Below are positions 1 through 44,989 of a stretch of DNA of 64,000 bases, piece by piece. The position numbers and the translations under genes are program-made. The notes below the pieces were generated by a model that had not been told where the DNA came from, did not search any database, and worked only from the letters and a program-made list of their open reading frames with translations. Source of the DNA: Allolobophora icterica. Lineage: Eukaryota > Annelida > Clitellata > Crassiclitellata > Lumbricidae. The stretch lies in the NCBI GenBank assembly GCA_963556255.1, contig OY744608.1:13705507-13769506 (forward strand), in the 5' to 3' direction. How positions within the stretch are numbered: the first letter of the stretch is position 1; the number at the start of each line of letters is the position of its first letter.

Positions 1-412
1 ACGCCCCTGCTGAGACTCATCTCGGACAAATGTGACGCCACTTATTCTGGTCGTTTCACGCTGCTTGCCCTCCTGGATGTAAGCGCGGCGTTTGACACCG
101 TCGATCACAAAATCCTGATCAAGCGCCTAGTTATCTCTTTTGGAATCGGCAGACGGCCACTGGATTGTCTGTGCTACTTGCTGAATGGACGGACAATAAT
201 GGTCAAAATCTGCTCGGAGCCTCGGACTGAACGGCTTGGACACCGGTTCCATTCGGTGTCGCGCAAGGCTCAGTACTCTGGCCTCTTCCTTACATCCTGT
301 ATACAGCCGATTCGACACAACTCGTCACTTCTCTGGGAGCGCGGAGACATCAAAAGGCCGATGACGTACAACTGTATTCAACTTGCCACCCATCTGATGC
401 ACTTGCATGTGT
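1..412 (+). pseudogene. Forward LINE RT fragment, unit 0
   Basis: The palm motif LLDVSAAFDT is at the left edge. Extra bases near 215-222 shift the frame before the QGSVL box, and the RT sequence stops at about 410, where a deletion joins it to subrepeat DNA. This is the unit 6 type. Confidence 0.75.
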
Positions 413-1799
413 ATCTTCGAAAATTGAGTGATTTAGTACACGCTCGTCGTAAAAGCGTTAAAACAGTAAGAATGCATTTTACTTGTTTTGTGTTGAGCCC
501 TAGTAGGTGGAGCCCCATCAACACCCACACCCTGTGTCACTCAACCATTTCCAACAGTGACTCCGTATTACATCTGATGAATAGATTCGTGTATTGGTAG
601 AAAGAGAGTGAAAGATGTTGAGAGTGTGCGTTTGAAAGAGGGAGACAGAGAAAGAGGGGTATTCCCTCTTCCACCGTAGTATCTGTGATAAAGTTCTTAT
701 GAGTAGAATCGTGCTTTGGTAGACAGAGAGTGTGGATGTACTTAGTAGAATCTGTGAGAACATAATCGATACTTTAAGTAGATTCGAGTATTGGTGTACA
801 GAGAGAGAGAGTTCAGATATAATTCTGTGACGAATTACTTGATTTTATGATTTGATTAGCGCTTTTTTGCATGATTTTATGATATTATGCATTTTAATTG
901 TTTTTTGTTGAGCCCTAGTAGGTGGAGCCCCATCCACGCCCACACCCTGTGTCACTCAACCATTTCCAACAGTGACTCCATATTAGATCTGATGAATAGA
1001 TTCGTGTATTGGTAGAAAGAGAGTGAAAGATGTTGAGAGTGTGGGTTTGAAAGAGGGAGACGGAGAAAGAGGGGTATTCCCTCTTCCACCGTAGTATCTG
1101 TGATAAAGTTCTAATGAGTAGAATCGTGCTTTGGTAGATAGAAAGTGTGGATGTACTTAAGTAGAATCTGTGAGAGTTGATTCGATACTTTAAGTAGATT
1201 CGAGTATTGGTGTATAGAGAGAGAGTTCAGATATAATTCTGTGTGGAATTACTTGATTTTATGATTTGATTAGCGCTTTTTTGCATGATTTTATGATATT
1301 ATGCATTTTAATTGTTTTTTGTTGAGCCCTAGTAGGTGGAGCCCCATCCACGCCCACACCCTGTGTCACTCAACCATTTCCGACAGTGACTCCATATTAG
1401 ATCTGATGAATAGATCCGTGTATTGGTAGAAATAGTGAAGGATGTTGAGAGTGTGCGTTTGAAAAAGAGAGGGAGACGGAGAAAGCGGGGTATTCCCTCT
1501 TCCACCGTAGTATCTGTGATAAAGTAATCGTTCTTGTGAGTAGAGTCGTGCTTTGGTAGACAGAGAGTGTGGTTGTACTTAAGCAGAATCTGTGAGAGTT
1601 GAATCGATACTAAAAGTAGATTCGAGTATTGGTGTATAGAGAGAGAGTTCAGATATAATTCTGCGAGGAATTACTTCATTTTATGATTTGATTTGCGCTT
1701 TTTAAACTTGATTTTATGATTTGATTAATTAGCGCTTTGGTGAGGAGTGTGAAATTGCGTTTAATGCCGTTTGTTGTTGAGAAAGGTGGAGCCCCATCC
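1..1799. repeat. Satellite unit 0 (left-truncated)
   Basis: The array continues past the left window edge. This part holds the end of a forward RT fragment (to about 410) and then three tandem ~415-bp subrepeats. Their shared block GTTGAGCCCTAGTAGGTGGA begins near 492, 907 and 1321. Bases 1-600 match 14777-15376 almost exactly (unit 6 type), with a difference near 527. Confidence 0.85.
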
Positions 1800-1954
1800 T
1801 CACCCAACCATTTCACCTGGTGGCTCCAGGTTTGATCTGATGAGTAGATTCGTGATTTGATAAAGAGAGATAGTGTTGATGTACATGTCTAGAAATTTTG
1901 GGAACTTAATCTTACGAGCAGATTCGTGTATTGTACGAAGAAAGAGAGAGTTGA

Positions 1955-2712
1955 TCTGCAAGACTAGCATCAGATGGGTGGCAGGTCGCGTAAATCTGCA
2001 CGCCGTCAGCGTAGTGATGAAACGGCGCACCAATGCCCGTGATGACTTGGGTCAAATCCGCGGTGTAGAGGATGTAGAACAGCGGGCCAAGTACGGATCC
2101 CTGAGGTACACCGCACAAAACCAGTACCCAGGCCGACATGTCCGAGTCAAACCTGACTCCTATCGCCCGCCCGTCAACGAAGGAGCGCAGCCAGTCGAGC
2201 AACCGGCCAGCAAAGCCATAGGAGTACCAAGACGGGTCAGAAGGATGATGTGATCGTTGGTGTCGAACGCCGCGCTGACATCGAGTAGAGCGAGTGGCGT
2301 GACTCTTCCAGCGTCCATAGCATCGTAGATGTCGGACACGAGTCGAAGAAGAAGCGTCTCAGTCGAGTCGCCTTTCCTGAAACCGGACGCTTTAGCTCAT
2401 GCCATCCTCGATGGTGCGTGTCTAGATAACACACCACCTGCTGCGTGACTATTTTCTCGTTGATCTTAGAGATAAAAGGCAGGTTGGAGACTAGGCGGTA
2501 GTTACTGATATCATTAGAATCCAGTCCAGGTCTCTTGAGGCATTGTCGTACGATGGCCGGCTTTTGGATGATATGGTAAATACCCTTAGGAAAGTGAGGT
2601 GTTGCAAAGCTGCAACAGCAATGGAATCAGCTCGTCGACGAACTCCTGAAGAAGAAAGGTCGGGACCGGATCAAGCGAACACGTCTTTGAGGGCAAAGTC
2701 CGGAGAAGTTAC
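1955..2712 (-). pseudogene. Reverse LINE RT fragment, unit 1
   Basis: It encodes fingers and palm (KTCSLDPVPTFL, LLDVSAAFDT, GVPQGSVLGPLFYILYTADL, YADGVQIY). A one-base loss near 2221 (GGAGTACC instead of GGAGGTACC) splits the palm frame. The catalytic YADD is YADG. Confidence 0.8.
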
Positions 2713-2832
2713 CTCAGTTCAGAGTAGGTCGGCAGATGGTGAGGTACCTAGAAGCAAGCCACCTCCTGTAGAAGCTCATCGAGAAAGTAGTTGCTCAGCA
2801 GATGGTGAGGTACCTAGACAGCAAGCCACCTC

Positions 2833-3360
2833 ATGCCGAAGCTCCAGGCCGGTTTCAGAGAAGGAAATTTGACAGACACGCCCCTGCTGAGACTCATCTC
2901 GGACAAATGTGACGCCACTTATTCTGGTCGTTTCACGCTGCTTGCCCTCCTGGATGTAAGCGCGGCGTTTGACACCGTCGATCACAAAATCCTGATCAAG
3001 CGCCTAGTTATCTCTTTTGGAATCGGCAGACGGCCACTGGATTGTCTGTGCTACTTGCTGAATGGACGGACAATCATGGTCAAAATCGGCTCGGACTGCA
3101 CGGCTTGGACACCGGTTTCATTCGGTGTCGCGCAAGGCTCAGTACTCTGGCCGCTTCCTTACATCCTGTATACAGCCGATTCGACACAACTCGGTCCATC
3201 TCTGGGAGCGCGGAGACATCAAAAGGCCGATGACGTACAACTGTATTCAACTTGCCACCCATCTGATGCACTTGCATGTGTATCTTCTAAAAAGGGCATT
3301 GGAGTAGAAGTGCTGAAATGGATGTCGTCTAAATCGCCTGAATTCGTGAAAGACAGTTTA
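2833..3360 (+). pseudogene. Forward LINE RT fragment, unit 1
   Basis: Open from the LQAGFREG motif through LLDVSAAFDTVDH, GVAQGSVLWPLPYILYTADS, KADDVQLY and LKWMSSKSPEF. The reading frame then runs into subrepeat DNA and stops at 3450. The box is KADD rather than YADD, and the usual GP after QGSVL is WP. It lacks the fingers region, so it cannot be a working RT. Confidence 0.8.
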
Positions 3361-4184
3361 TTTGGTTGGGCACATACCGGCGCCTTAGAATTGTATATTG
3401 GTCGAAAAAGAGTGTGTATATGTACATGTTTATTGTCTGTGCGAGTTTAATGGATCTTTAGAGTCGACAATTGAGTGATTCGAAGTCACTTTTAGTACAC
3501 ACTCGTCGTAAAAGCGTTAAGACAGTAGGAATGCATTTTACTTGTTTGGTGTTGAGCCCTAGTAGGTGGAGCCCCATCCACGCCCACACCCTGTGTCACT
3601 CAACCATTTCCGACAGTGACTCCATATTAGATCTGATGAATAGAATTCGTGTATTGATGGAAAGAGAGTGAAAGATGTTGAAAGTGTTCGTTTGAAAGAG
3701 AGAGGGAGACGGAGGAAGAGGGGTATTCCCTCTTCCACCGTAGTATCTGTGATAAAGTAATCGTTCTTATGAGTAGAGTCGTGCTTTGGTAGACAGAGAG
3801 TGTGGATGTACTTAAGTAGAATCTGTGAGTGTTGAATCGATACTTTAAGTAGATTCGAGTATTGGTGTATAGAGAGAGAGTTCAGATACAATTCTGTGAG
3901 GAATTACTTGATTTTATGATTTGATTAGCGCTTTTTTTACTTGATTTTATGATTTGATTAGCGCTTTGGTAAAAGAGTGTGAAATTGCGTTTAATGCCGT
4001 TTGTTGTTGAGAAAGGTAGAGCCCCATCCTCACCCAGCCATTTCAGCTGGTTGCTTCAGGTTTGATCTGATGAGTAGATTCGTGATTTGATAAAGAGAGA
4101 TAGTGTTGATGTACATGTCTAGAAACTGTGGGAACTTAATCTTACGAGCAGATTCGTGTATTGTACGAAGAAAGAGAGAGTTGA

Positions 4185-4942
4185 TCTGCAAGACTAGCAT
4201 CAGATGGGTGGCAGGTCGCGTAAATCTGCACGCCGTCAGCGTAGTGATGAAACGGCGCACCAATGCCCGTGATGACTTGGGTCAAATCCGCGGTGTAGAG
4301 GATGTAGAACAGCGGGCCAAGTACGGATCCCTGAGGTACACCGCACAAAACCAGTACCCAGGCCGACATGTCCGAGTCAAACCTGACTCCTATCGCCCGC
4401 CCGTCAACGAAGGAGCGCAGCCAGTCGAGCAACCGGCCAGCAAAGCCACAGGAGGTACCAAGACGGGTCAGAAGGATGATGTGATCGTTGGTGTCGAACG
4501 CCGCGCTGACATCGAGTAGAGCGAGTGGCGTGACTCTTCCAGCGTCCATAGCATCGTAGATGTCGGACACGAGTCGAAGAAGAAGCGTCTCAGTCGAGTC
4601 GCCTTTCCTGAAACCGGACGCTTTACCTCATGCCATCCTCGATGGTGCGTGTCTAGATAACACATCACCTGATGCGTGACTATTTTCTCGTTGATCTTAG
4701 AGATAAAAGGCAGGTTGGAGACTAGGCGGTAGTTACTGATATCATTAGAATCCAGTCCAGGTCTCTTGAGGCATGGTCGTACGATGGCCGGCTTTTGGAT
4801 GATATGGTAAATACCCTTAGGAAAGTGAGGTGTTGCAAAGCTGCAACAGCAATGGAATCAGCTCGTCGACGAACTCCTGAAGACGAAAGGTCGGGACCGG
4901 ATCAAGCGAACACGTCTTTGAGGGCAAAGTCCGGAGAAGTTA
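4185..4942 (-). pseudogene. Reverse LINE RT fragment, unit 2 (reference copy)
   Basis: This is the best copy for reading the fragment. On the reverse strand, in order: KTCSLDPVPTFL (about 4930-4890), VDELIPLLLQLCNTSLS (about 4880-4830), RPGLDSNDISNYR and SNLPFISKI (about 4760-4690), SGFRKGDSTETLLLRL (about 4620-4575), then an open 142-codon stretch at 4570-4142 with LLDVSAAFDT, GVPQGSVLGPLFYILYTADL and YADGVQIY. These are the blocks of a CR1/L2-like non-LTR RT from the end of the endonuclease linker through the palm. Frames change in the fingers and a TAA follows CNTSLS. YADG instead of YADD removes a metal-binding aspartate. There is no endonuclease or thumb. Confidence 0.82.
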
Positions 4943-5063
4943 CCTCAGTTCAGAGTAGGTCAGCAGATGGTGAGGTACCTAGAAGCAAGCCACCTCCTGT
5001 AGAAGCTCATCGAGAAAGTAGTTGCTCAGCAGATGGTGAGGTACCTAGACAGCAAGCCACCTC

Positions 5064-5600
5064 ATGCCGAAGCTCCAGGCCAGTTTCAGAGAAGGAAATT
5101 TGACAGACACGCCCCTGCTGAGACTCACCTCGGACAAATGTGACGCCACTTATTCTGGTCGTTTCACGCTGCTTGTCCTCGTGGATGTAAGCGCGGCGTT
5201 TGACACCGTCGATCACAAAATCCTGATCAAGCGCCTAGTTATCTCTTTTGGAATCGGCAGACGGCCACTGGATTGTCTGTGCTACTTGCTGAATGGACGG
5301 ACAATCATGGTCAAAATCGGCTCGGACTGCACGGCTTGGACACCGGTTCCATTCGGTGTCGCGCAAGGCTCAGTACTCTGGCCGCTTCCTTACATCCTGT
5401 ATACAGCCGATTCGACACAACTCGGTCCATCTCTGGGAGCGCGGAGACATCAAAAGGCCGATGACGTACAACTGTATTCAACTTGCCACCCATCTGATGC
5501 ACTTGCATGTGTATCTTCTAAAAAGGGCATTGGAGTAGAAGTGCTGAAATGGATGTCGTCTAAATCGCCTGAATTCGTGAAAGACAGTTTATTTGGTTGG
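5064..5600 (+). pseudogene. Forward LINE RT fragment, unit 2 (reference copy)
   Basis: Open over 200 codons (5064-5666). It starts at LQAS/AGFREG, the start of the palm block, with no fingers. It shares the HPSDA end point and LLDVSAAFDT with the reverse fragment but differs by roughly a third of bases, so the pair is two insertions or subfamilies of one clade and not a recent inverted duplication. KADDVQLY replaces YADDxQLY. Confidence 0.8.
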
Positions 5601-6402
5601 GCAGACACCGTCGATACTTTAAGTAGATTGGAGTATTGGTGTATAGAGAGAGAGATTCATATATAAGTCTGTGAGCAATTACTTGATTTTTTTTATTTGA
5701 TTAGCGCTTTTTTACTTGATTTTATGAGTTGATGCATTTTACTTGTTTTGTGTTGAACCCTAGTAGGTGGAGTCCCGTCCACGCCCACACCCTGTGTCAC
5801 TCAACCATTTCCGACAGTGACTCCATATTAGATCTGATGAATAGATTCGTGTCTTGGTAGAAAGAGAGTGAAAGATGTTGAGAGTGTGCGTTTGAAAGAG
5901 AGAGGGAGACGGAGAAAGAGGGGTATTCCCTCTTCCACCGTAGTATCTGTGAGAAAGTAATCGTTCTTATGAGTAGAGTCGTGCTTTGGTAGACAGAGAG
6001 TGTGGATGTACTTAAGTAGAATCTGTGAGAGTTGAATCGATACTTTAAGTAGATTCGAGTATTGGTGTATAGAGAAAGAGTTCAGATATAATTCTGTGAG
6101 GAATTAGTTGATTTTATTACTTGATTAGCGCATTTTTGCTTGATTTTATGATTTGATTAGCGATTTGATAAAAGAGTGTGAAATTGCGTGTAATGCCGTT
6201 TGTTGTTGAGAAAGGTGGAGGCCCATCCTCACCCAACCATTTCAGCTGGTGGCTCCAGGTTTGATCTGATGAGTAGATTCGTGATTTGATAAAGAGAGAT
6301 AGTGTTGATGTACAATGTACATGTCTAGAAACTGTGGGAACTTAATCTTACGAGCAGATTCGTGTATTGTACGAAGAAAGAGAGAGTTGATCTGCAAGAC
6401 TA

Positions 6403-7153
6403 GCATCAGATGGGTGGCAGGTCGCGTAAATCTGCACGCCGTCAGCGTTGTGATGAAATGGCGCACCAATGCCCGTGATGACTTGGGTCAAATCCGCGGT
6501 GTAGAGGATGTAGAACAGCGGGCCAAGTACGGATCCCTGAGGTACACCGCACAAAACCAGTACCCAGGCCGACATGTCCGAGTCAAACCTGACTCCTATC
6601 GCCCGCCCCTCAACGAAGGAGCGCAGCCAGTCGAGCAACCGGCCAGCAAAGCCATAGGAGGTACCAAGACGGGTCAGAAGGATGATGTGATCGTTGGTGT
6701 CGAACGCTGCGCTGACATCGAGTAGAGCGAGTGACGTGACTCTTCCAGCGTCCATAGCGTCGTAGATGTCGGACACGAGTCGAAGAAGAAGCGTCTCAGT
6801 CGAGTCGCCTTTCCTGAAACCGGACGCTTTACCTCATGCCATCCTCGATGGTGCGTGTCTAGATAACACACCACCTGCTGCGTGACTATTTTCTCGTTGA
6901 TCTTAGAGATAAAAGGCAGGTTGGAGACTAGGCGGTAGTTACTGATATCATTAGAATCCAGTCCAGGTCTCTTGAGGCATGGTCGTACGATGGCCGGCTT
7001 TTGGATGATATGGTAAATACCCTTATGAAAGTGAGGTATTGCAAAGCTGCAACAGCAATTAAATCAGCTCGTCGACGAACTCCTGAAGACGAAAGGTCGG
7101 GACCGGATCAAGCGAACACGTCTTTGAGGGCAAAGTCCGGAGAAGTTACCTCA
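6403..7153 (-). pseudogene. Reverse LINE RT fragment, unit 3
   Basis: The 142-codon palm stretch is intact at 6776-6348. The box is degraded further to NADG (HHNADGVQIY), and the fingers-palm region reads FVEGRAIG. Only this unit and unit 8 have NADG. Confidence 0.8.
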
Positions 7154-7269
7154 GTTCAGAGTAGGTCAGCAGATGGTGAGGTACCTAGAAGCAAGCCACC
7201 TCCTGTAGAAGCTCATCGAGAAAGTAGTTGCTCAGCAGATGGTGAGGTACCTAGACAGCAAGCCACCTC

Positions 7270-7800
7270 ATGCCGAAGCTCCAGGCCGGTTTCAGAGAAG
7301 GAAATTTGACAGACACGCCCCTGCTGAGACTCATCTCGGACAAATGTGACGCCACTTATTCTGGTCGTTTCACGCTGCTTGCCCTCCTGGATGTAAGCGC
7401 GGCGTTTGACACCGTCGATCACAAAATCCTGATCAAGCGCCTAGTCATCTCTTTTGGAATCGGCAGACGGCCACTGGATTGTCTGTGCTACTTGCTGAAT
7501 GGACGGACAATCATGGTCAAAATCGGCTCGGACTGAACGGCTTGGACACCGGTTCCATTCGGTGTCGCGCAAGACTCAGTACTCTGGCCTCTTCCTTACA
7601 TCCTGTATACAGCCGATTCGACACAACTCGGTCCATCTCTGGGAGCGCGGAGACATCAAAAGGCCGATGACGTACAACTGTATTCAACTTGCCACCCATC
7701 TGATGCACTAGCATGTGTATCTTCTACAAAGGGCATTGGAGTAGAAGTGCTGAAATGGATGTCGTCGAAATCGCCTGCGGCTGAATTCGTGAAAGACAGT
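7270..7800 (+). pseudogene. Forward LINE RT fragment, unit 3
   Basis: A TGC-to-TGA change ends the frame at 7536, before the QGSVL box. The downstream palm sequence is still recognisable. Confidence 0.78.
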
Positions 7801-8644
7801 TTATTTGGTTGGGCACACACCGGCGCGTTATAATTGTATATTGGTCGAAAAAGAGTGTGTAGATGTACATGTTTATTGTCTGTGCGAGTTTAAAAGATCT
7901 TTAGAGTCGACAATTGAGTGATTCGAAGTCACTTTTAGTATACGCTCGTCGTAAAAGCGTTAAAACAGTAGGAATGCATTTTACTTGTTTTGTGTTGAGC
8001 CCTAGTAGGTGGAGCCCCGTCCACGCCCACACCCTGTGTCACTCAACCATTTCCGACAGTGACTCCATATTAGATCTGATGAATAGATTCGTGTGTTGGT
8101 AGAAAGAGAGTGAAAGATGTTGAGAGTGTGCGTTTGAAAGAGAGAGGGAGACGGAGAAAGAGGGGTATTCCCTCTTCCACCGTAGTATCTGTGAGAAAGT
8201 AATCGTTCTCATGAGTAGAGTCGTGCTTTGGTAGACAGAGAGTGTGGATGTACTTAAGTAGAATCTGTGAGAGTTGAATCGATACTTTAAGTAGATTCGA
8301 GTATTGGTGTATAGAGAAAGAGTTCAGATATAATTCTGTGAGGAATTAGTTGATTTTATTACTTGATTAGCGCATTTTTGCTTGATTTTATGATTTGATT
8401 AGCGCTTTGATAAAAGAGTGTGAAATTGCGTGTAATGCCGTTTGTTGTTGAGAAAGGTGGAGTCCCATCCTCACCCAACCATTTCAGCTGGTGGCTCCAG
8501 GTTTGATCTGATGAGTAGATTCGTGATTTGATAAAGAGAGATAGTGTTGATGTACAATGTACATGTCTAGAAACTGTGGGAACTTAATCTTACGAGCAGA
8601 TTCGTGTATTGTACGAAGAAAGAGAGAGTTGATCTGCAAGACTA

Positions 8645-9390
8645 GCATCAGATGGGTGGCAGGTCGCGTAAATCTGCACGCCGTCAGCGTAGTGATGAAA
8701 CGGCGCACCAATGCCCGTGATGACTTGGGTCAAATCCGCGGTGTAGAGGATGTAGAACAGCGGGCCAAGTACGGATCCCTGAGGTACACCGCACAAAACC
8801 AGTACCCAGGCCGACATGTCCGAGTCAAACCTGACTCCTATCGCCCGCCCCTCAACGAAGGAGCGCAGCCAGTCGAGCAACCGGCCAGCAAAGCCATAGG
8901 AGTACCAAGACGGGTCAGAAGGATGATGTGATCGTTGGTGTCGAACGCTGCGCTGACATCGAGTAGAGCGAGTGACGTGACTCTTCCAGCGTCCATAGCG
9001 TCGTAGATGTCGGACACGAGTCGAAGAAGAAGCGTCTCAGTCGAGTCGCCTTTCCTGAAACCGGACGCTTTAGCTCATGCCATCCTCGATGGTGCGTGTC
9101 TAGATAACACACTACCTGCTGCGTGACTATTTTCTCGTTGATCTTAGAGATAAAAGGCAGGTTGGAGACTAGGCGGTAGTTACTGATATCATTAGAATCC
9201 AGTCCAGGTCTCTTGAGGCATGGTCGTACGATGGACGGCTTTTGGATGATATGGTAAATACCCTTATGAAAGTGAGGTATTGCAAAGCTGCAACAGCAAT
9301 TAAATCAGCTCGTCGACGAACTCCTGAAGACGAAAGGTCGGGACCGGATCAAGCGAACACGTCTTTGAGGGCAAAGTCCGGAGAAGTTAC
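8645..9390 (-). pseudogene. Reverse LINE RT fragment, unit 4
   Basis: The palm is open over 96 codons (8880-8590) with FVEGRAIG and YADG. The one-base loss near 8899 is the same as in unit 1. Confidence 0.8.
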
Positions 9391-9510
9391 CTCAGTTCAG
9401 AGTAGGTCAGCAGATGGCGAGGTACCTAGAAGCAAGCCACCTCCTGTAGAAGCTCATCGAGAAAGTAGTTGCTCAGCAGATGGTGAGGTACCTAGACAGC
9501 AAGCCACCTC

Positions 9511-10050
9511 ATGCCGAAGCTCCAGGCCGGTTTCAGATAAGGAAATTTGACAGACACGCCCCTGCTGAGACTCATCTCGGACAAATGTGACGCCACTTAT
9601 TCTGGTCGTTTCACGCTGCTTGCCCTCCTGGATGTAAGCGCGGCGTTTGACACAGTCGATCACAAAATCCTGATCAAGCGCCTAGTTATCTCTTTTGGAA
9701 TCGGCAGACGGCCACTGGATTGTCTGTGCTACATGCTGAATGGACGGACAATCATGGTCAAAATCTGCTCGGACTGCACGGCTTGGACACCGGTTCCATT
9801 CGGTGTCGCGCAAGGCTCAGTACTCTGGCCGCTTCCTTACATCCTGTATACAGCCGATTCGACACAACTCGTCACTTCTCTGGGAGCGCGGAGACATCAA
9901 AAGGCCGATGACGTACAACTGTATTCAACTTGCCACCCATCTGATGCACTTGCATGTTTATCTTCTACAAAGGGCATTGGAGTAGAAGTGCTGAAATGGA
10001 TGTCGGCTGAATCCGCCAAAGACAGTTTATTTGGTTGGGCACATACCGGG
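9511..10050 (+). pseudogene. Forward LINE RT fragment, unit 4
   Basis: A GAA-to-TAA nonsense change lies at 9538-9540. After it the frame is open to 10149, through KADDVQLY and into subrepeat DNA. CYMLNG replaces CYLLNG. Confidence 0.78.
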
Positions 10051-11555: not shown

Positions 11556-11676
11556 CCTCAGTTCAGAGTAGGTCAGCAGATGGTGAGGTACCTAGAAGCA
11601 AGCCACCTCCTGTAGAAGCTCATCGAGAAAGTAGTTGCTCAGCAGATGGTGAGGTACCTAGACAGCAAGCCACCTC

Positions 11677-28290: not shown

Positions 28291-28412
28291 ACCTCAGTTC
28301 AGAGTAGGTCAGCAGATGGTGAGGTACCTAGAAGCAAGCCACCTCCTGTAGAAGCTCATCGAGAAAGTAGTTGCTCAGCAGATGGTGAGGTACCTAGACA
28401 GCAAGCCACCTC

Positions 28413-31347: not shown

Positions 31348-31467
31348 CTCAGTTCAGAGTAGGTCAGCAGATGGTGAGGTACCTAGAAGCAAGCCACCTC
31401 CTGTAGAAGCTCATCGAGAAAGTAGTTGCTCAGCAGATGGTGAGGTACCTAGACAGCAAGCCACCTC

Positions 31468-32007: not shown

Positions 32008-32769
32008 CGCGTTAGAATTGTATATTGGTCGAAAAAGAGAGTATGTAGATGTACATGTCAAGTGTCTGTGCGAATTAATGGATCTTTAGAGTCGAAAATT
32101 GAGTGATTTAGTACACGCTCGTCGTAACAGCGTTAAAACAGTAGGAATGCATTTTACTTGTTTTGTGTTGAGCCCTAGTAGGTGGAGCCCCATCCACGCC
32201 CACACCCTGTGTCACTCAACCATTTCCGACAGTGACTCCATATTAGATCTGATGAATAGATTCGTGTATTGGTAGAAAGCGAGTGAAAGATATTGAGAGT
32301 GTGCGTTTGAAAGAGAGAGGGAGACGGAGAAAGAGGGGTATTCCCTCTTCCACCGTAGTATCTGTGAGAAAGTAATCGTTCTTATGAGTAGAGTCGTGCT
32401 TTGGTAGACATAGAGTGTGGATGTACTTAAGTAGAATCTGTGAGAGTTGACTCGATACTTTAAGTAGATTCGAGTATTGGTGTATATATAGAGAGAGAGT
32501 TCGGATATAATTCTGTGAGGAATTACTTGATTTTATGATTTGATTAGCGCTTCTTAAAAGAGTGTGAAATTGCGTTTAATGCCGTTTGTTGTTGAGAAAG
32601 GTAGAGCCCCATCCTCACCCAACCATTTCAGCTGGTGGCTCCAGGTTTGATCTGATGAGTAGATTCGTGATTTGATAAAGAGAGATAGTGTTGATGTACA
32701 TGTCTAGAAATTGTGGGAACTTAATCTTACGAGCAGATTCGTGTATTGTACGAAGAAAGAGAGAGTTGA

Positions 32770-33510
32770 TCTGCAAGACTAGCATCAGATGGGTGGCAGG
32801 TCGCGTAAATCTGCACGCCGTCAGCGTAGTGATGAAACGGCGCACCAATGCCCGTGATGACTTGGGTCAAATCCGCGGTGTAGAGGATGTAGAACAGCGG
32901 GCCAAGTACGGATCCCTGAGGTACACCGCACAAAACCAGTACCCAGGCCGACATGTCCGAGTCAAACCTGACTCCTGTCGCCCGCCCGTCAACGAAGGAG
33001 CGCAGCCAGTCGAGCAACCGGCCAGCAAAGCCATAGGAGGTACCAAGACGGGTCAGAAGGATGATGTGATCGTTGGTGTCGAACGCCGCGCTGACATCGA
33101 GTAGAGCGAGTGGCGTGACTCTTCCAGCGTCCATAGCATCGTAGATGTCGGACACGAGTCGAAGAAGAAGCGTCTCAGTCGAGTCGCCTTTCCTGAAACC
33201 GGACGCTTTAGCTCATGCCATCCTCGATGGTGCGTGTCTAGATAACACACCACCTGCTGCGTGACTATTTTCTCGTTGATCTTAGAGATAAAAGGCAGGT
33301 TGGAGACTAGGCGGTAGTTACTGATATCATTAGAATCCAGTCCAGGTCTCTTGAGGCATGGTCATACGATGGCCGGCTTTTGGATGATATGGTAAATACC
33401 CTTAGGAATGTGAGTTGTTGCAAAGCTGCAACAGCAATGGAATCAGCTCGTCGACGAACTCCTGAAGAAGAAAGGTCGGACACGTCTTTGAGGGCAAAGT
33501 CCGGAGAAGT
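32770..33510 (-). pseudogene. Reverse LINE RT fragment, unit 14
   Basis: Open palm at 33155-32727, FVDGRATG, YADG. The 15-bp loss is near 33477. Confidence 0.8.
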
Positions 33511-33633
33511 TACCTCAGTTCAGAGTAGGTCAGCAGATGGTGAGGTACCTAGAAGCAAGCCACCTCCTGTAGAAGCTCATCGAGAAAGTAGTTGCTCAGC
33601 AGATGGTGAGGTACCTAGACAGCAAGCCACCTC

Positions 33634-34190
33634 ATGCCGAAGCTCCAGGCCGGTTTCAGAGAAGGAAATTTGACAGACACGCCCCTGCTGAGACTCATCT
33701 CGGACAAATGTGACGCCACTTATTCTGGTCGTTTCACGCTGCTTGCCCTCTTGGATGTAAGCGCGGCGTTTGACACCGTCGATCACAAAATCCTGATCAA
33801 GCGCCTAGTTATCTCTTTTGGAATCGGGCAGACGGCCACTGGATTGTCTGTGCTACTTGCTGAATGGACGGACAATCATGGTCAAAATCTGCTCGGACTG
33901 CACGGCTTGGACACCGGTTCCATTCGGTGTCGCGCAAGACTCAGTACTCTGGCCGCTTCCTTACATCCTGTATACAGCCGATTCGACACAACTCGTCACT
34001 TCTCTGGGAGCGCGGAGACATCAAAAGGCCGATGACGTACAACTGTATTCAACTTGCCACCCATCTGATGCACTTGCATGTGTATCTTCTACAAAGGGCA
34101 TTGGAGTAGAAGTGCTGAAATGGATGTCGGCTGAATCCGCCAAAGACAGTTCATTTGGTTGGGCACATACCGGGCGTGTTAGAATTGTAT
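33634..34190 (+). pseudogene. Forward LINE RT fragment, unit 14
   Basis: Unit 5 type frameshift near 33828. The block after the QDSVL box reads GCTTCC here (TLAASLHP in the first frame) where units 5, 10 and 12 read TCTTCC. Confidence 0.78.
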
Positions 34191-35102: not shown

Positions 35103-35829
35103 TGTCGCAATCGGTGGTCTCCCTGTCGTGTGTTTGCCGTGTGTTGATGTCGACCCTCGATTGCTTGTTCTTTTACTTGCACTTTTATTTAACGTGCCTA
35201 ACTTTTCTATAGAAGATTCACGACGAACTTTGTTTAATTAATAAATGAATTTAATTAAAGAAACAAATATATATACACTAACTCTACGGGAACTTCCACG
35301 TAGTATTAAAGCGTTTAGATATTAAATCGGACTATCTCAAATGTTGCTTCGTACAGCCTAACTACAGATCGTTCTTTCGCGTCAGTCTCTGAATCTGACG
35401 GACTAATACTCTGCCGCCCCGCTGGTCGTTCCTCCCGATGTTGATCGCTCGACCGATGTTCACACGTCGCGTTCGTCAGCAGTACAAGTCCCGTATTCTC
35501 CGTTCCCTTCTGTTAAGTAGGAACTCCAGCGTGCATCAGTCAGCCCCCCTCCCCACGTCAAGCTATCGTCAATTAGTGTCAGATTGCTCCTCGATACGCG
35601 GGTCGTCGCTCGCCTGCAGCGCGGGCGGTGTCTGGTTACACCATAGCCGCGAGGTGTCCTATTACACCTTGGCTGTGTGGTGTCCGATTACACCTGGGCC
35701 TCGCTGCCTTCATTGTTGCCCAAGTGGAGACTGGCTTTCGTCCGTCATCATCCTATCTCGACCGGCAACGACGCTTACATCATAATGACGATGCCATCTC
35801 GTCGTTGTCGTCGATCTCCTCACGCGACA
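35103..35829 (-). repeat. 3' LTR (727 bp)
   Basis: It starts TGTCGCAATC and ends CTCACGCGACA on the plus strand. It differs from the other LTR near 35115-35122 (GGTGGTCTCC against GGAGGTTTCC) and near 35630 (GGTGTCTGG against GGTATCTGG). On the element strand it has a TATA-like GTGTATATATATTT (about 35265-35280) and AATAAA at 35184-35189, about 85 bases further on, consistent with a short R region. Confidence 0.95.
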
Positions 35830-35840
35830 CCTCCCTTCCC
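35830..35840 (-). other. Polypurine tract
   Basis: On the element strand it reads GGGAAGGGAGG and directly abuts the TGTCGC start of the 3' LTR. This is the expected primer for plus-strand DNA synthesis. Confidence 0.85.
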
Positions 35841-36019
35841 GGGGGAGGACAAAGCCAGTCATTGGTTCGCCTCCCGGCTGAGAATGATGTCGTTCCCTCC
35901 ATCGATTTCCTCCAGACCATGTCCTCGTCGTTCCCATGAAAATACAAAATATCAGCACAGTTAGAAATATATTTACAGTTGTCGCGGTGCCTTACATGGT
36001 AGTCCGCCTTCTTCCTCAA
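35841..36019 (-). other. Element 3' untranslated region
   Basis: Only about 180 bases separate the ORF stop from the polypurine tract, so no integrase lies downstream of RNase H. Confidence 0.8.
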
Positions 36020-39000
36020 TCATAGTCTGGACAAAAGATCAGCGGGAATATTCAGCGCCCCAGGTCGATATTCAAAAGACATATCGAAGTCCTGGAGGGC
36101 CAAAGCCCCTCTCGCAAGTTTAGCACTCGTGGGCGTAGAAGCAGTTAGGAAAGTCAAGGGGGTGTGATCAGAATAGAGGGTGGTCCTTGACATAAAAATC
36201 CAATCCCTAAACTTCTTCCACGCAGAAATCACAGCATGCGCTTCGCGTTCCACAGTGGACCAACGCGCTTGCGTAGCATCTAATTTAGAACTGGCAAAAC
36301 ATGTTGGCCGTTCTGTTCCATCGTCTTGAATTTGGAATAAGCAGCAACCGACTGCTTCGTCTGAAGCATCAGTCGATAGACCAAACCCTCTGCCGTAGTC
36401 AATTGTCTGCAAACATACAGTGTTATTCAAATCGTGCGTAAGATTATCTAGCGCCTTTTGGTGATCAGCTCGCCAGGGTATCTTAACAGGCACCGATTTC
36501 TGGGTCCAGTCAATGAGAATTCTGGCTGTCTCAGCCAGGTTAGGGATGAAGTTCCTAAAATAACTGAAGAAACCAATTAATCTCCGTATGTCCTTTTTGG
36601 ACTCGGGTTGAGGGATTTTCCCTTGCCCTGCGATTTTCATAGGATCCGGTTCAATGCTCCCTGATCCGATCAGGTGACCAACAAACGTTGTTTGTCGCCT
36701 AGCAAACGAACTCTTCTTAATGTTAAGGGTCAGACCCGACTGTTGAATAGTCATTAAGTACTTCTCTAGATGTTTCATGTGATCCGGCCACGTCATCGAA
36801 TGTACTGCCATGTCACTATGTGAGGGAGTGATGATACCTAGGGCCAAAAGTTCGCGGGTCTGCTTCTCCATCTCCGGTTTGAGCAGTTCCGGCACCTTAT
36901 AGGCTCGCAAACTCTTCGGCCTGAACTCCGCGCTAACAGTGATTGTGTGTTCTAGGACGGGACAGAAACCTGGTTTGTCCGAGAACACATCTGGAAACCT
37001 GTCTAACAGACTAAACAGCTGTTTCCGCTCGGGTACCGTTAAGTGTGCAACGGCAATAGGGTCTACTTGTGCACTGGGCCTTGTCTGCCTCGTGACGAAG
37101 CTACCCACCGTTTCCCCGTGACCGAAGTCTTCGTCCTTCTCGAACAGAATGGAGCAATTGTTAATCAATGCTTGCTGTATTCTTTCGTTATATTTGCGAA
37201 TCCGATTTGCGTGTAGTAAGCGGCTTTTGCCCCCTATTTCCACGATGTATGTGTAGGGCGATTTCACCTGAGCGATGATGGCCGGGCCTTGCCCTTGGCC
37301 CTCCTTCTTTGCTCCTCGCGCTTCCGGTGATTGGGTGATAACTTTGTCTATTCTCTCTTTAGGCAAGCACAGTTGTTTTACAGAATGCCCAGCTATTTTG
37401 TCTTTATGAAAGGGCAAATTGTCTTCAGTGAAGAAGCTCTTCGCCCCAATTTTCCCGTGGGCCAAGAATGGTGCTAGTGTCGAACATTGTGCTTGTTCAG
37501 CAGCCATCTTGTTTCTGCCTACTATTGTGTCTTCCTTGGGTGGGGGTGGTATCTCAGGATTGAAGAATAGCTCTTCATTATCCGTTTCTTCGGGACCGAT
37601 TTCTCCTACACTCCCACTGTCTGCTTGAGCGACCGTGAAGTAATCTTCGCCTATCAGCGCCCTAAGTCCCTCTACCTCCTCCCCTCTCTCCTCTTCCTCA
37701 CTCGTCTCAGTCCTTGCGACCGCCTGCGCTTCTGAAATTTGGTCTATTTCAGGAGCGCTGGCCGCGTGACTCGAGTACAACGCTGTCTCGCGCAGCAAGT
37801 CGGCTGTAGTGGGCGTGATAATTAACGGTTCATTAAGGTCTTTAATGAGTGCCGCCCATATCCGAACATCAGGGGCGTAATTTACCTCCCCCTCCCTATC
37901 CTCGCCGGCCTGAGACCCCTTTAGTCTCAGCCGCACCACATCCACAATCATTGATTGACCGTTCAGCCCCTTCACCTCTATCTGCTTGACCACAGGTAGG
38001 TTGAGCGGCCTGATTAGTTCTGCTCGCGCACAATTGTATTCGGCCCCGCTATCTATTAGAGACGATGTCACAGGGAGCCCCGTAATATACACTTTCATGT
38101 ATTCTCTTACATAAGTCTCCTCCACGTCAATGCAATCCGGGCTTGTCGGCAATGCATGTTGGTCTATCTCTTGTATCAATGGCGGTCCGTCTTGTCGCGT
38201 CTCGCTTTGTCTGTCTGCCTGTCTGTCTTGAGCTCTGGTCACGGTTGGCTGGACCGCACACGCGCTCACCTGCTTGCTTTTAATTTGTTTGTTCTTCGAG
38301 CACAGTTTAGCTCTGTGGTCTGGAGAAAAGCATAGGAAACAAAGGCCACGCTTTCTAATCTCGTCGGGGGTTGGACGTCCGTCTGTCCTGTTATTTGTCT
38401 GTGTCCCTCCCGGTCGGTCAGTCCACGTGTCCGTCTGTTTAGCTGTCGTCTGAGGAGGTGCTGGTGCTTTCGCATAGCGAGCCTCCGTCTTACCCGTGCC
38501 TAGACTATGCTTCGTATAGTCACTTTCCCAAGGGTGTGTGGCGGCGTAAGTGTCAGCCGCTGCAGCTAACTCTTTGTGCCCTAACCAATTCTGTTGCTCT
38601 TGACTGAGGATGAAATTCAAACATCCTCTGGGCAACATTTCTTTCATTTTATCTGCAATCAAGAGGCTTGTAACCTCATCAAACGTCATTGCCTTGCGAT
38701 CTTGCAGATAGTAAGAAAGTAAATTATGCAGTCTCGAAGCTAATGTTGTGTATGATTCATCTACCGCCTTTTTTGCGTTCATGAATCGCTCTCGTAAAGA
38801 GACTGCGCTCACTTTGAACTCTTTCAACAAGAAGGTTTTTAGCTTCCCGTAATTATCAAGCTCCTCTTGTGTGAGTCTGGCCGTCAGTGCTCTGGCCTGA
38901 TTATCTAGACAGGTCAAGAGTAATCTGCTTCGAAGGTCGTCCGGGACAGCGCAAGAGTCGAATAACCTTTCGCAATGCACAAAGAAACCAGGGATTTGCG

Positions 39001-39838
39001 CATGGTCGCTGGGGAATCTCGGTAAGAGTCCTCGCAAGCTTTCACTATACGTTTTCATTCGTCCTACGACCGAATGCCTCAAGTTATAGTCCCTTTCGTC
39101 TCTGAGTCTCCTCTCTGCGTCCCTTTCCTCTCGGACCTCCTTCTCTCTCTTCTCTGCCTCCTCCTTTTCTTCTCTCCTCCGCTTCTCCTCCTGAAGCCTG
39201 AGCTTCTCAGCTCCCTCTCTCTCTTCCCTTCTCTGCTTCTCCTCACGAAGCCTTACTCCTTCTGCTTCCTCTCTTGCTTCTCTTCTCAGCCTCTCGGCTT
39301 CCTCTCTCTCTTCCCTTCTCTGCTTCTCCTCACGAAGCCTTACTCCTTCTGCTTCCTCTCTCGCTTCTCTTCTCAGCCTCTCAGCTTCCTCCTTTTGTTC
39401 TTTCCTCAATCTTTCCGCTTCCTCCTTCTCTTCTCTTCGCTGCTTCTCCGCTTCCTCTTTTTCTTCTCTCCTCAGTCTTTCTTCTTTCTCTTCTCTTCTC
39501 CTCTCTTTCTCTTCCTCTCTTCTCTCTCTTCTCTCCGCTTCCTCTCTCAGCCTTGCGGCTTCCTCTCTCTCGTATTTTAAGCGTTTTAATTCGTATAACT
39601 GCGTTTGCGCTGCCGAATCGATACTGCTTTCTATGCTACCCGTGCTTACTTCCTCACTTACTTCTGGCGGGGTTTCCCGTCCAGACACAATTATTTCAGC
39701 ACTCGCCTCTTGGAGTTGGCCCGTACTCATGGAACCCAATTCCTCCTCTCCTAGTCCCATCTTTATCATATATGCGACTAGTCTGTGACGGGGCATGTTC
39801 TGCACCCTCACTCTTTTCCCTACCGACAACTTATCCAT
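36020..39838 (-). CDS. Gag-Pol polyprotein of LTR element, lacking integrase and RT cores
   Basis: A 1272-aa single frame. Residues ~75-255 are a highly charged coiled coil with internal repeats (REEAEGVRLREEKQRREE occurs twice). Residues ~260-435 resemble a SCAN-like retrotransposon capsid. A CCHC zinc knuckle is C500, C503, H508, C513. The retropepsin motif is LIDSGAE (D596). Residues ~790-826 (AHGKIGAKSFF, LPKERIDKVI) resemble sequence just before an integrase zinc domain, and ~858-883 (SPYTYIVEIGG, LLHANRIRKY) resemble the end of a Gypsy integrase. The HHCC and DDE parts between them are absent. RT starts at ~958 (LEHTITV), reaches LGIITPSHS at 1008 and jumps to DMAVHSMTW, which normally follows the YxDD active site, so about 130 residues of palm are missing. 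Thumb and RNase H follow, with D1157, E1199, D1224 and D1267. Protease, integrase edges, RT, RNase H is the Gmr1-type order. No stop or frameshift is present. It could make virus-like-particle proteins but not reverse transcribe. Confidence 0.88.
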   Translation of the reverse strand: MDKLSVGKRVRVQNMPRHRLVAYMIKMGLGEEELGSMSTGQLQEASAEIIVSGRETPPEVSEEVSTGSIESSIDSAAQTQLYELKRLKYEREEAARLREEAERRERREEEKERRREEKEERLRREEKEEAEKQRREEKEEAERLRKEQKEEAERLRREAREEAEGVRLREEKQRREEREEAERLRREAREEAEGVRLREEKQRREEREGAEKLRLQEEKRRREEKEEAEKREKEVREERDAERRLRDERDYNLRHSVVGRMKTYSESLRGLLPRFPSDHAQIPGFFVHCERLFDSCAVPDDLRSRLLLTCLDNQARALTARLTQEELDNYGKLKTFLLKEFKVSAVSLRERFMNAKKAVDESYTTLASRLHNLLSYYLQDRKAMTFDEVTSLLIADKMKEMLPRGCLNFILSQEQQNWLGHKELAAAADTYAATHPWESDYTKHSLGTGKTEARYAKAPAPPQTTAKQTDTWTDRPGGTQTNNRTDGRPTPDEIRKRGLCFLCFSPDHRAKLCSKNKQIKSKQVSACAVQPTVTRAQDRQADRQSETRQDGPPLIQEIDQHALPTSPDCIDVEETYVREYMKVYITGLPVTSSLIDSGAEYNCARAELIRPLNLPVVKQIEVKGLNGQSMIVDVVRLRLKGSQAGEDREGEVNYAPDVRIWAALIKDLNEPLIITPTTADLLRETALYSSHAASAPEIDQISEAQAVARTETSEEEERGEEVEGLRALIGEDYFTVAQADSGSVGEIGPEETDNEELFFNPEIPPPPKEDTIVGRNKMAAEQAQCSTLAPFLAHGKIGAKSFFTEDNLPFHKDKIAGHSVKQLCLPKERIDKVITQSPEARGAKKEGQGQGPAIIAQVKSPYTYIVEIGGKSRLLHANRIRKYNERIQQALINNCSILFEKDEDFGHGETVGSFVTRQTRPSAQVDPIAVAHLTVPERKQLFSLLDRFPDVFSDKPGFCPVLEHTITVSAEFRPKSLRAYKVPELLKPEMEKQTRELLALGIITPSHSDMAVHSMTWPDHMKHLEKYLMTIQQSGLTLNIKKSSFARRQTTFVGHLIGSGSIEPDPMKIAGQGKIPQPESKKDIRRLIGFFSYFRNFIPNLAETARILIDWTQKSVPVKIPWRADHQKALDNLTHDLNNTVCLQTIDYGRGFGLSTDASDEAVGCCLFQIQDDGTERPTCFASSKLDATQARWSTVEREAHAVISAWKKFRDWIFMSRTTLYSDHTPLTFLTASTPTSAKLARGALALQDFDMSFEYRPGALNIPADLLSRL

Positions 39839-40346
39839 CTTCCAACAGTCCGCTCACTAATAGAAAAAGATAAGTAAGTTAGAGGAGAGTCACCGCTGGT
39901 CAGAAATCAAAGAAAACAACGTCCTAAAATTCTACCACAAATACAACAAGAACAGAACTGAGTAAAAGGAGCTACGCAAAAGCCTCGGCTATTCGCACAC
40001 CAATCCTCATCCAGACCTCAACCGCAACCTCACAGATTACCACGACTACCAGTAAGGACTTACCCTCTGATACGTCGAGCGTGTTCCGTCTTTTGGTATC
40101 TTGGCTGATCCGCTGTCCTCCGTTGCCACTCCCGTCCGTCGTTGCTAGCGATGGTCGGTCGTCCGTTGGCGCTCTTGTTCCTCGTCCTTGCCTGTTGCTG
40201 TCGGTTCCTTCGAGTCCTTCGTCCTCAGGAGTCCGGCACTCGATTTCTCCAGTTGCGAAGGGTTGTATTCGCCGCTGGTCCCGATCTGTTGAGATTCCTC
40301 TGTTCCGTTTCCGGTTCCGTTCTTCGTCGTGACGTCTTCAGTTGAA
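39839..40346 (-). other. Element leader (5' UTR)
   Basis: About 0.5 kb between the primer site and the first ATG of gag-pol. No conserved ORF was recognised. A packaging signal would be expected here but cannot be identified by eye. Confidence 0.6.
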
Positions 40347-40365
40347 AATCCTGTCGACTGCGCCA
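40347..40365 (-). other. Primer binding site, tRNA-Ser-like
   Basis: The element strand reads TGGCGCAGTCGACAGGATT, one base from the 5' LTR. Its complement ends in CGACTGCGCCA, like the 3' end of eukaryotic tRNA-Ser plus CCA. Tyrosine or other tRNAs with a similar acceptor cannot be excluded without the host tRNA set. Confidence 0.75.
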
Positions 40366-40366
40366 A

Positions 40367-41093
40367 TGTCGCAATCGGAGGTTTCCCTGTCGTGTGTTTG
40401 CCGTGTGTTGATGTCGACCCTCGATTGCTTGTTCTTTTACTTGCACTTTTATTTAACGTGCCTAACTTTTCTATAGAAGATTCACGACGAACTTTGTTTA
40501 ATTAATAAATGAATTTAATTAAAGAAACAAATATATATACACTAACTCTACGGGAACTTCCACGTAGTATTAAAGCGTTTAGATATTAAATCGGACTATC
40601 TCAAATGTTGCTTCGTACAGCCTAACTACAGATCGTTCTTTCGCGTCAGTCTCTGAATCTGACGGACTAATACTCTGCCGCCCCGCTGGTCGTTCCTCCC
40701 GATGTTGATCGCTCGACCGATGTTCACACGTCGCGTTCGTCAGCAGTACAAGTCCCGTATTCTCCGTTCCCTTCTGTTAAGTAGGAACTCCAGCGTGCAT
40801 CAGTCAGCCCCCCTCCCCACGTCAAGCTATCGTCAATTAGTGTCAGATTGCTCCTCGATACGCGGGTCGTCGCTCGCCTGCAGCGCGGGCGGTATCTGGT
40901 TACACCATAGCCGCGAGGTGTCCTATTACACCTTGGCTGTGTGGTGTCCGATTACACCTGGGCCTCGCTGCCTTCATTGTTGCCCAAGTGGAGACTGGCT
41001 TTCGTCCGTCATCATCCTATCTCGACCGGCAACGACGCTTACATCATAATGACGATGCCATCTCGTCGTTGTCGTCGATCTCCTCACGCGACA
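40367..41093 (-). repeat. 5' LTR (727 bp)
   Basis: The partner of 35103-35829, with the same TGTCGC/GCGACA ends, TATA-like region (near 40530-40543) and AATAAA. This copy would drive reverse-strand transcription of the element. Confidence 0.95.
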
Positions 41094-41560
41094 ATTACTT
41101 GATTTTATGATTTGATTAGCGCTTTTTAACTTGATTTTATGATTTGATGCATTTTACTTGGTTTTTGTTGAGCCCTAGTAGGTGGAGTCCCATCCACGCC
41201 CACACCCTGTGTCACTCAACCATTTCCAACAGTGACTCCATATTAGATCTGATGAATAGATTCGTGTATTGGTGGAAAGAGAGTTAAAGATGTTGAGAGT
41301 GCGCGTTTGAAAGAGGGAGACGGAGGAAGATGGGTATTCCCTCTTCCACCGTAGTATCTGTGATAAAGTAATCGTTCTTATGAGTAGAGTCGTGCTTTGG
41401 TAGACAGAGAGTGTGTGTGTACTTTAGTTGAATCTGTGAGAACTTAATCGTTATTATCGGTAGATTCGAGTATTGGTTTAAAGAGAATGCAGATTTATGG
41501 TTCTGTGAAAAATTACTTGGTTTTAAGATTTGATCGGCGCCTGAGTTAAGGGGTGAGTAG
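41094..41560. repeat. Satellite subrepeat resuming after the LTR element
   Basis: It resumes with ATTACTTGATTTTATG and includes one subrepeat (block near 41168). It is more diverged than internal copies, especially after 41430. Confidence 0.85.
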
Positions 41561-42310
41561 ATGTGCGTGACTAGTATCTGTGATTGCTTAATCGATCTTA
41601 CGAGTTGATTCATATATTGATGAATTGAAATTGGACACGTAGATAACAAGAATCTGTGAGAACTTTGGGATCTTTTTGGGTGGATTGCTATATTGGTAGA
41701 GCGTGTGTAGATGAACATGTTTAGTGTCTGTGCGAATTTAGTGGATCTGTAGAATAGAGTGACTGGAAATCACTTTTTGTACACCTTCGTTGTTAACCAG
41801 CCATAACAGTCGAATATGCGTTTATTGCGTGCTGGTGTGGAGAAAGGTAGAGTCCCAACCGTTTCAGAGGTGACTCCGAATTCAATCTTATGAGTAGATG
41901 AGTTATTTTGACGAAGAGAGGTAGTGTTGATGTACAATTGTACATGATTAGAATCTGCGAGAAGTGTTTCGATTTTATCAGTTGGTTGGTGTATTGGTGG
42001 AGAGAGGTAACGAGTAGATGAACACGACTGGAATCTGTGAGAATTTGATCGATCTTTTGAGTAAAGTCGTTTCTTGTTTATGAGAGAAAGTGTAGATGTA
42101 AATAACACGGTGTCTCAGAACCTGTAAGTAGTATCATGTGCTATCAGGAAGTAAATGTGTAAATGTAAATGATCAGAATTTGGGAAAATTAAATGATACA
42201 ATGAATAGATTTGTGTATTGGTAAAGAGAGGATGAATGGGTATAAGACTCATGACTGAAACCTTTGAGATAATGTTCGATTTCATGAGTAGATTCACATG
42301 CTTTTATCAA
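41561..42310. repeat. Diverged satellite edge: ~75-85 bp monomers
   Basis: About eight decayed monomers, each with a version of GATTCGTGTATTGGTAGAGAG, then GTAGATGTACATG, then GAATCTGTGAGAA. They show the building block of the 420-bp subrepeat. 41690-41860 matches, at reduced identity, the sequence that follows the forward RT fragment in units 1 and 3. No RT sequence occurs here. Confidence 0.7.
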
Positions 42311-42419: not shown

Positions 42420-42438
42420 CATCAGTGATGGGCACTTT

Positions 42439-44985: not shown

Positions 44986-44989
44986 TATC

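What the first reader, a model, noticed from the sequence alone, without database searches (positions are those of the whole stretch)
1..42310. Composite satellite whose unit contains two divergent RT fragments
Each of 14 unit starts is followed by a reverse-strand RT fragment, a spacer, a forward-strand RT fragment and 1-3 subrepeats. Satellites built around paired, oppositely directed RT palm fragments are unusual. The shared end at ACTTGCCACCCATCTGATGC in both arms suggests two insertions or copies were captured before amplification.
Basis: partly seen in the sequence, partly recalled or inferred. Interest (0 to 1): 0.75.

Follow-up and report, generated by a model that had tools for sequence, protein, structure and literature searches.

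The report
Tandem array of paired retrotransposon scraps
Two dead retrotransposon fragments joined head to head inside an old repeat were copied to about two dozen places in what looks like an animal genome and stand multiplied side by side at ten of them, most strongly here; it is junk-derived DNA, but it shows a composite repeat both before and after it became tandem.

Summary
The array is real. It has 14 complete tandem units (2.0-3.1 kb), each with a linker holding one or three 425-bp subrepeats, a minus-strand RT fragment (R), a spacer and a plus-strand RT fragment (F). The stated span includes an unnoticed LTR element (35103-41093). R and F come from two different, dead LINE lineages (78 of 137 residues alike; dN 0.31, dS 1.81). 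The 'shared 20-mer end' is 17 bp of RT codons; F continues as RT past it. The linker is a degenerate 76-80 bp minisatellite. Five units form an 11,675-bp higher-order repeat whose two copies differ at 4 sites. Genome-wide, R with F lies at 23 loci (R alone at a 24th) on 9 contigs: one complete block at 13, tandem at 10, about 59 R arms. In a tree covering 7 of the 10 tandem loci, units group by locus. Best reading: one founding fusion, dispersal by an unknown vehicle, then repeated local tandem expansion, probably by unequal exchange. High-copy satellite status is not shown; the array meets 5 kb of N. A hairpin reading is weakened by my own control.

The parts
1..400 (+). F arm of the first, cut-off unit (the window starts inside the array, right after a 5-kb run of N)
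401..34071 (+). 14 complete composite units in tandem (linker, R, spacer, F), unit lengths 1999-3062 bp
4196..4950 (-). R arm (unit 2 as example): antisense fragment of a LINE reverse transcriptase, up to codons CHPSDA; frame broken upstream; the YADD motif reads YADG (NADG in units 3 and 8)
4951..5103 (.). spacer (unit 2) with a 66-bp tandem duplication (GCAGATGGTGAGGTACCTAGA at 4963 and 5029); head-to-head junction of the two RT fragments
5104..5500 (+). F arm (unit 2): sense fragment of a second LINE lineage; by eye, RT similarity runs about 60 bp further (..VLKWMSSK)
3270..4190 (+). linker of unit 2, made of a degenerate 73-bp monomer mostly spaced 76-80 bp; one 425-bp subrepeat
12358..13620 (+). 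three 425-bp subrepeats in the unit-6 linker
5501..17175 (+). higher-order repeat copy 1 (five units, 11,675 bp)
17176..28850 (+). higher-order repeat copy 2; differs from copy 1 at 4 of 11,675 sites
28851..31904 (+). unit 13, a mosaic: linker identical to that of unit 11 (0 of 1745), R-F block identical to that of unit 9 (0 of 1309); switch point within about 30463-30807
35103..41093 (-). gypsy-like LTR element inserted in the array; LTRs 35103-35829 and 40367-41093 (3 of 727 differ), TSD ATTAC; by my reading of the frame, most of the RT core is missing
   Evidence: (three pieces searched)
41094..42310 (+). right edge of the array: one more subrepeat, then degenerate minisatellite without RT arms
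42312..42463 (+). piece shared with downstream flanks of other R-F loci
44080..45651 (+). downstream segment; part of it (44478-45660) lies near 19 of the 24 loci and at some loci without R-F

Best explanation
A dead composite repeat that became tandem in place several times. (a) Fragments of two different LINE lineages came to lie head to head inside an old 76-80 bp minisatellite tract, once. (b) That composite, with minisatellite on both sides and several kb of flank, was copied to at least 23 places, mostly in chromosome interiors. (c) At 10 of these, unequal exchange between the flanking minisatellite/425-bp subrepeats, and later between whole units, produced tandem units. Here it went furthest: 14 or more units and a five-unit higher-order repeat. 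(d) An LTR element later landed in the array. Shown: anatomy, shared junction, dispersal, locus-wise grouping of units (7 of 10 tandem loci tested), higher-order repeat, mosaic unit. Inferred: unequal exchange as the engine, the order of events in (a), independence of the three tandem loci not in the tree, and heterochromatin as the setting. The vehicle of dispersal is unknown.
For: R and F diverged as coding LINEs and are now broken in frame and motif. The R-satellite junction is the same in 18 of 19 oriented stretches, the 19th (L022) keeping only about 12 bp of the satellite side; the spacer with its duplication is shared: one founding fusion. 23 loci with R and F plus one with R alone, 9 contigs. 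In a tree of 45 blocks, window, L012, L018, L023, L024 and L025 are each monophyletic at support 0.998-1.0; the C11:21.5 locus groups together only in the unrooted sense, read by eye. Mosaic unit 13 with exact donors. HOR copies differ at 4 of 11,675. Loci sit at 0.19-0.66 of chromosome length, against 33 of 73 ordinary LINE copies; Mann-Whitney p 2.5e-4 on 20 merged loci.
Against: Step (b) lacks a mechanism: I located no ends of a dispersing unit and saw no TSD (tested in two loci only; other views; no systematic search for terminal repeats). The R-F block is about half as diverged as its flanks, which an inert fragment would not predict without mutation-rate differences or conversion. No exchange was observed directly. 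Tandem arrays at C2:45.60, C7:45.54 and C11:17.04 were not in the tree, and C2:45.60 and C2:48.54 share the same spacer variant, so those two may be copies of one array. The assembly may misstate copy number.
Confidence: 0.7

Rival explanations
1. The composite is the 5' or internal part of a large non-autonomous mobile element (LINE-like, Helitron-like or foldback) that carries its tandem repeats with it, as Tetris does in Drosophila virilis; arrays arise inside the element.
For: A downstream segment (window 44478-45660) lies near 19 of 24 loci, a 20th; longer shared flanks. Left ends stop at many different points (inside F, R or the linker), as in 5' truncation. Downstream pieces also occur without R-F.
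Against: Right ends vary too. No TSD in the two loci tested. Open frames of 75 aa or more in the flanks of 12 loci, read by eye and not searched, showed remnants of other LINEs but no transposition gene that I recognised. No common 3' end up to about window 51.5 kb. Among the 40 of 200 scored candidates for 50393-51200, only this locus, C7:45.55 and C2:39.95 are R-F loci.
Confidence: 0.2
2. The inverted R/F pair is kept because it makes a long imperfect hairpin RNA (source of small RNAs against LINEs, or a structural RNA).
For: R and F are complementary at 330 of 498 aligned positions. RNA of unit 14 folds at -551 kcal/mol, z -10.6 against 30 shuffles. Complementary positions are less variable across 17 loci: 183 of 660 vs 145 of 336, p 1.6e-6; only in the true register (13 shifted registers, odds ratio 0.84-1.31). 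The R-F block has K 0.06 vs 0.11-0.13 in flanks.
Against: Control: classing the same sites by identity to eight other LINE copies gives the same trend, mostly weaker (odds ratios 0.64-0.84 for R, 0.50-0.71 for F, against 0.54 and 0.47 for the partner arm). Only 5 double changes in 5577 cells, 2 of them pairing; no G-U strand bias at paired sites (45 vs 61). Two inverted homologous fragments are expected to fold this way anyway.
Confidence: 0.06
3. The array is an assembly artefact: repeated or falsely duplicated sequence next to a gap.
For: The two HOR copies are nearly identical and the window begins at a 5-kb run of N.
Against: Units inside one HOR differ by 0-2% in R-F and by up to about 13% in linkers, and tandem sets of 2-7 units lie at nine other loci.
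Confidence: 0.05

Closest known systems
Composite satDNA monomers from 'TE graveyards' (hypothesis, PMC12628747: abstract, section 5 whole and the first part of section 4 read)
   Same: A tandem monomer holding stretches of several degraded TEs next to each other.
   Different: Here single-block copies survive at 13 loci and the TE pieces are long (about 0.4-0.75 kb), so an order of events can be read off; the review speaks of short segments.
Tetris / TIR-220 satellite of Drosophila virilis (PMC4079207: abstract and outline seen)
   Same: Dispersed composite whose internal repeats expand into kb-size arrays.
   Different: Tetris is a foldback DNA transposon with terminal inverted repeats; no termini were located here, and the R/F inverted pair is internal and only about 65% alike.
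LINEs of the CR1/L2 type (clade name recalled, not tested)
   Same: RT motifs FDTVDH, GVPQGSVLGPL and a YADD-like site; the 120 listed relatives of F are all PF00078 proteins, best hit 48% identity.
   Different: Only RT fragments, both dead in the window, with neither LINE end seen.
Satellites with higher-order repeats (general knowledge)
   Same: Multi-monomer block duplicated almost identically; a mosaic unit beside it.
   Different: Few copies found genome-wide; the monomer is a TE composite.

Membership tests
Satellite DNA | Head-to-tail tandem units | tested here: met
   14 units here; 2-7 units at nine other loci
Satellite DNA | High copy number, long arrays | tested here: inconclusive
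   57 R-arm matches at 82% identity or more (150 of 26,085 candidates scored, the next rows being LINEs at 63% or less) plus 2 units at C1:54.16; longest set 14 units; but a run of N lies beside it
Satellite DNA | Homogenisation within an array (concerted evolution) | tested here: met
   6 of the 7 tandem loci in the tree are monophyletic, the 7th only in the unrooted sense; 3 tandem loci not in the tree
Composite TE-derived satDNA | Monomer with segments from more than one TE | tested here: met
   Two LINE lineages, dS 1.81, plus a minisatellite
Foldback/MITE-derived satellite (Tetris-like) | Terminal inverted repeats and TSD around dispersed copies | tested here: inconclusive
   No TSD found in L010 and L022; ends of the dispersed unit not located; no systematic terminal-repeat search
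Functional non-LTR retrotransposon | Intact RT frame and catalytic residues | tested here: not met
   In the window R reads YADG or NADG and F reads KADD, with frameshifts; stops in many copies elsewhere. One R fragment elsewhere (L039) reads YADD but has no F and runs into a microsatellite
hpRNA / small-RNA locus | Expressed hairpin processed into small RNAs | not testable with these tools
   No RNA data held; sequence tests ambiguous

The most novel reading that the evidence does not exclude
The head-to-head RT pair is a conserved hairpin-forming unit: selection or arm-to-arm repair keeps its complementary positions and holds the whole 1.3-kb block at half the divergence of its flanks across the 18 stretches compared, so the genome has turned two dead LINE fragments into a recurrently amplified anti-LINE dsRNA source.
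Probability: 0.07. Interest if true: 0.8.

Novelty: new variant of a known kind. Interest (0 to 1): 0.42.

Why it matters
How composite satellite monomers arise from TE debris is called an open question in a 2025 review (PMC12628747). Here one genome holds single-block composites, short tandem sets and a longer array with a higher-order repeat, all sharing one fusion. That makes the step from dispersed composite to satellite, and why some loci expand and others do not, directly testable with long reads and sister species.

Tried and rejected
Palindromic duplication of one LINE: rejected by dN/dS between arms. Shared insertion end: rejected. Coding selection on the arms: variable sites do not favour third positions (F 53/40/45 of 132/133/133, R 38/43/53 of 136 each). 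LINE amino-acid conservation predicts variability poorly (z -1.61 alone, -0.48 in the joint model). Hairpin selection: strong at first, then shown by other-LINE controls to be largely a property of LINE-conserved sites; a residual partner-arm effect remains among sites matching at least half of the control LINEs (odds ratio 0.48, p 0.0045) and not among the rest (0.71, p 0.23). Arm-to-arm conversion: at mismatched sites where a transition would make the arms complementary, 46 such transitions against 29 transversions; where a transversion would, 24 such against 21 other transversions and 40 transitions: no clear excess. LINE-like dispersal with a common 3' end: no end found. No Rfam family at the gathering score and no tRNA in the window. 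Five paper searches, judged by the titles and abstract starts of the rows listed (20 of 82, 1 of 1, 0, 12 of 407, 3 of 3), showed no satellite built on paired opposed RT fragments; that covers only this open-access library and those rows.

The control used 73 LINE rows; nine rows on C8, C13 and C15 (lengths not in hand) and 11 F-arm rows were dropped. The hairpin tests used 17 of 18 stretches (L027 dropped as the same locus as L026).
Full report
WHAT IS THERE. The window is G000:C7:13705507-13769506 of a 1.118-Gb, 328-contig genome. Bases 401-34071 hold 14 complete tandem units. R arms start at 1961, 4191 ... 32776; F-arm ends (the 20-mer) lie at 381 ... 34052, all in one orientation. Unit lengths are 1999-3062 bp; R+spacer+F is nearly constant (about 1.3 kb) and the linkers vary from 703 to 1745 bp, in large part because they hold one or three 425-bp subrepeats. 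The 5,000 bases left of the window read N, so the array is open there. On the right it is interrupted by an LTR element at 35103-41093 (LTRs differ at 3 of 727 sites, 5-bp TSD ATTAC). It then fades into minisatellite without RT arms by about 42310.

THE ARMS. R (minus strand) covers RT from about SELRKLL to CHPSDA. F (plus strand) covers about KLIEKVV to ..VLKWMSSK (read by eye). They align without gaps over 421 bp at 64%. Over 137 codons 78 residues agree; differences fall 36/32/82 on codon positions; dN 0.31, dS 1.81. That is divergence under purifying selection, so these are two LINE lineages, not a folded copy of one. Both are dead in the window: R reads YADG or NADG, F reads KADD, and there are frameshifts; many copies elsewhere carry stops. 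The 17 shared end bases are codons of a motif and F continues as RT past them, so they are not a common insertion end.

THE LINKER. A 73-bp monomer profile finds 123 hits in seven test stretches, mostly spaced 76-80 bp, and 0 hits in 14 kb of other window sequence. So there are four levels: 76-80 bp monomer, 425-bp subrepeat, 2.2-kb composite, five-unit 11,675-bp higher-order repeat. The two HOR copies (5501-17175, 17176-28850) differ at 4 sites, three of them within 62 bp of the left edge. Unit 13 is a mosaic: its linker equals that of unit 11 (0 of 1745) and its R-F block equals that of unit 9 (0 of 1309), with the switch between -133 and +212 of the R start. This is what unequal exchange would leave.

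ELSEWHERE IN THE GENOME. The R-F block gave 114 matches (40 of 281 candidates scored); the rows after the first 40 are R/F cross-matches at 64-67%. A 41-base spacer pattern gave 43 matches against 0 in the reversed control. The R protein gave 57 matches at 82% or more, then LINEs and F arms at 63% or less (150 of 26,085 candidates scored). Together, with 2 units at C1:54.16: about 59 R arms at 24 loci on 9 contigs. At one locus (C1:39.38) there is R without F. Of the 23 others, 10 have 2-14 units and 13 have one complete block; at least four of the 13 also carry a truncated neighbour (L013, L014, L016, L017), and one (L022) has only 53 bp of F. Two more loci hold only remnants (L045, L047). 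The R-satellite junction is the same in 18 of 19 oriented stretches (L026 and L027 being one locus), L022 keeping only about 12 bp of the satellite side. In a tree of 45 blocks, six multi-unit loci are each monophyletic (support 0.998-1.0); the C11:21.5 locus, where the tree happens to be rooted on a truncated fragment, groups only in the unrooted sense; C2:45.60, C7:45.54 and C11:17.04 were not included. So for the loci tested dispersal came before local expansion. The loci lie at 0.19-0.66 of chromosome length, while 33 of 73 LINE copies do (Mann-Whitney p 2.5e-4 on 20 merged loci). Where the centromeres are is not known.

HOW IT SPREAD. Loci share several kb downstream of F, including window 42312-42463 and 44080-45651; 44478-45660 lies near 19 of the 24 loci. 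The left ends stop at many points. This resembles 5' truncation, but right ends vary, I found no common right end and no TSD in the two loci tested, and I made no systematic search for terminal repeats. I leave the vehicle open: segmental duplication or a large mobile element.

AN UNEXPLAINED FEATURE. The R-F block is less diverged than its surroundings: mean K80 0.060-0.065 for R, spacer and F, 0.108 for the next 261 bp, 0.119-0.129 for pieces further down (5-6 stretches each); Ftail exceeds F in 141 of 151 pairs. Mismatch rises within about 50-100 bp of both edges. It is not coding constraint. Complementary R/F positions are less variable than the others (183 of 660 vs 145 of 336), only in the true register. 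The effect survives context covariates (z -4.87) and restriction to singletons (odds ratio 0.55). But the same classing against eight other LINE copies gives odds ratios 0.50-0.84, so much of it belongs to sites conserved among LINEs. There are almost no compensatory changes (5 of 5577 cells double, 2 pairing). I therefore do not claim a hairpin function. In the unpaired rest of the block G>A outnumbers C>T (41 vs 16, uncorrected for composition), unexplained.

WHAT IS KNOWN. TE-derived and composite satellites are known; a 2025 review proposes that composite monomers come from TE graveyards (PMC12628747, abstract, section 5 and the first part of section 4). Tetris in D. virilis is a dispersed element whose inner repeats expand into arrays (PMC4079207, abstract and outline). 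Ours works like these: a variant with long, opposed RT fragments and surviving single-block copies. Filing: composite TE-derived tandem repeat; high-copy satellite status inconclusive.

Noticed in passing
window 35103-41093 (-): Gypsy-like LTR element with near-identical LTRs. Of its 1277-aa frame three pieces were searched: RNase H is clear, RVT_1 matches only its last 49 positions below cut-off. By eye most of the RT core and the integrase are missing: probably a non-autonomous deletion derivative.
   Followed up: partly
window 1 and C7:13700507-13705506: The window begins exactly at the end of a 5,000-base run of N (assembly gap or withheld), so the array is open on the left.
   Followed up: yes
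window 50393-51200: A dispersed piece with matches at many loci (40 of 200 candidates scored), few of them R-F loci; contains GATGACGTCATC-like motifs. Right end not found.
   Followed up: partly
window 42693-42866, 43412-43528 and 54443-54574, 61763-61869, 62409-62563: CAAGAC/GTCTTG hexamer repeats in opposite orientation, with similarity of about 90% over up to 198 bp, looking like parts of an inverted-repeat element.
   Followed up: no
window 42431-42476: Short palindrome (AACTACTGTAGTTAC.. / ..GTAACTACAGTAGTT) beside the 'end' piece, partly shared with L013, L014, L018 and L020.
   Followed up: no
L042 (C11:17.04 Mb): A more diverged tandem set of three; two units have a deletion across R and spacer (period 1834 bp between them).
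   Followed up: partly
L022 (C4:42.09 Mb): Short copy: R, spacer and 53 bp of F joined directly to the downstream segment (window 44847 on), then a (TAG)n tract.
   Followed up: partly
L039 (C1:39.38 Mb) 1594-2284: R fragment without spacer or F, bordered by a long microsatellite; it reads YADD where the window's R arms read YADG.
   Followed up: partly
R-F block at 18 stretches: Block half as diverged as its flanks; cause unknown (mutability, conversion or constraint).
   Followed up: partly
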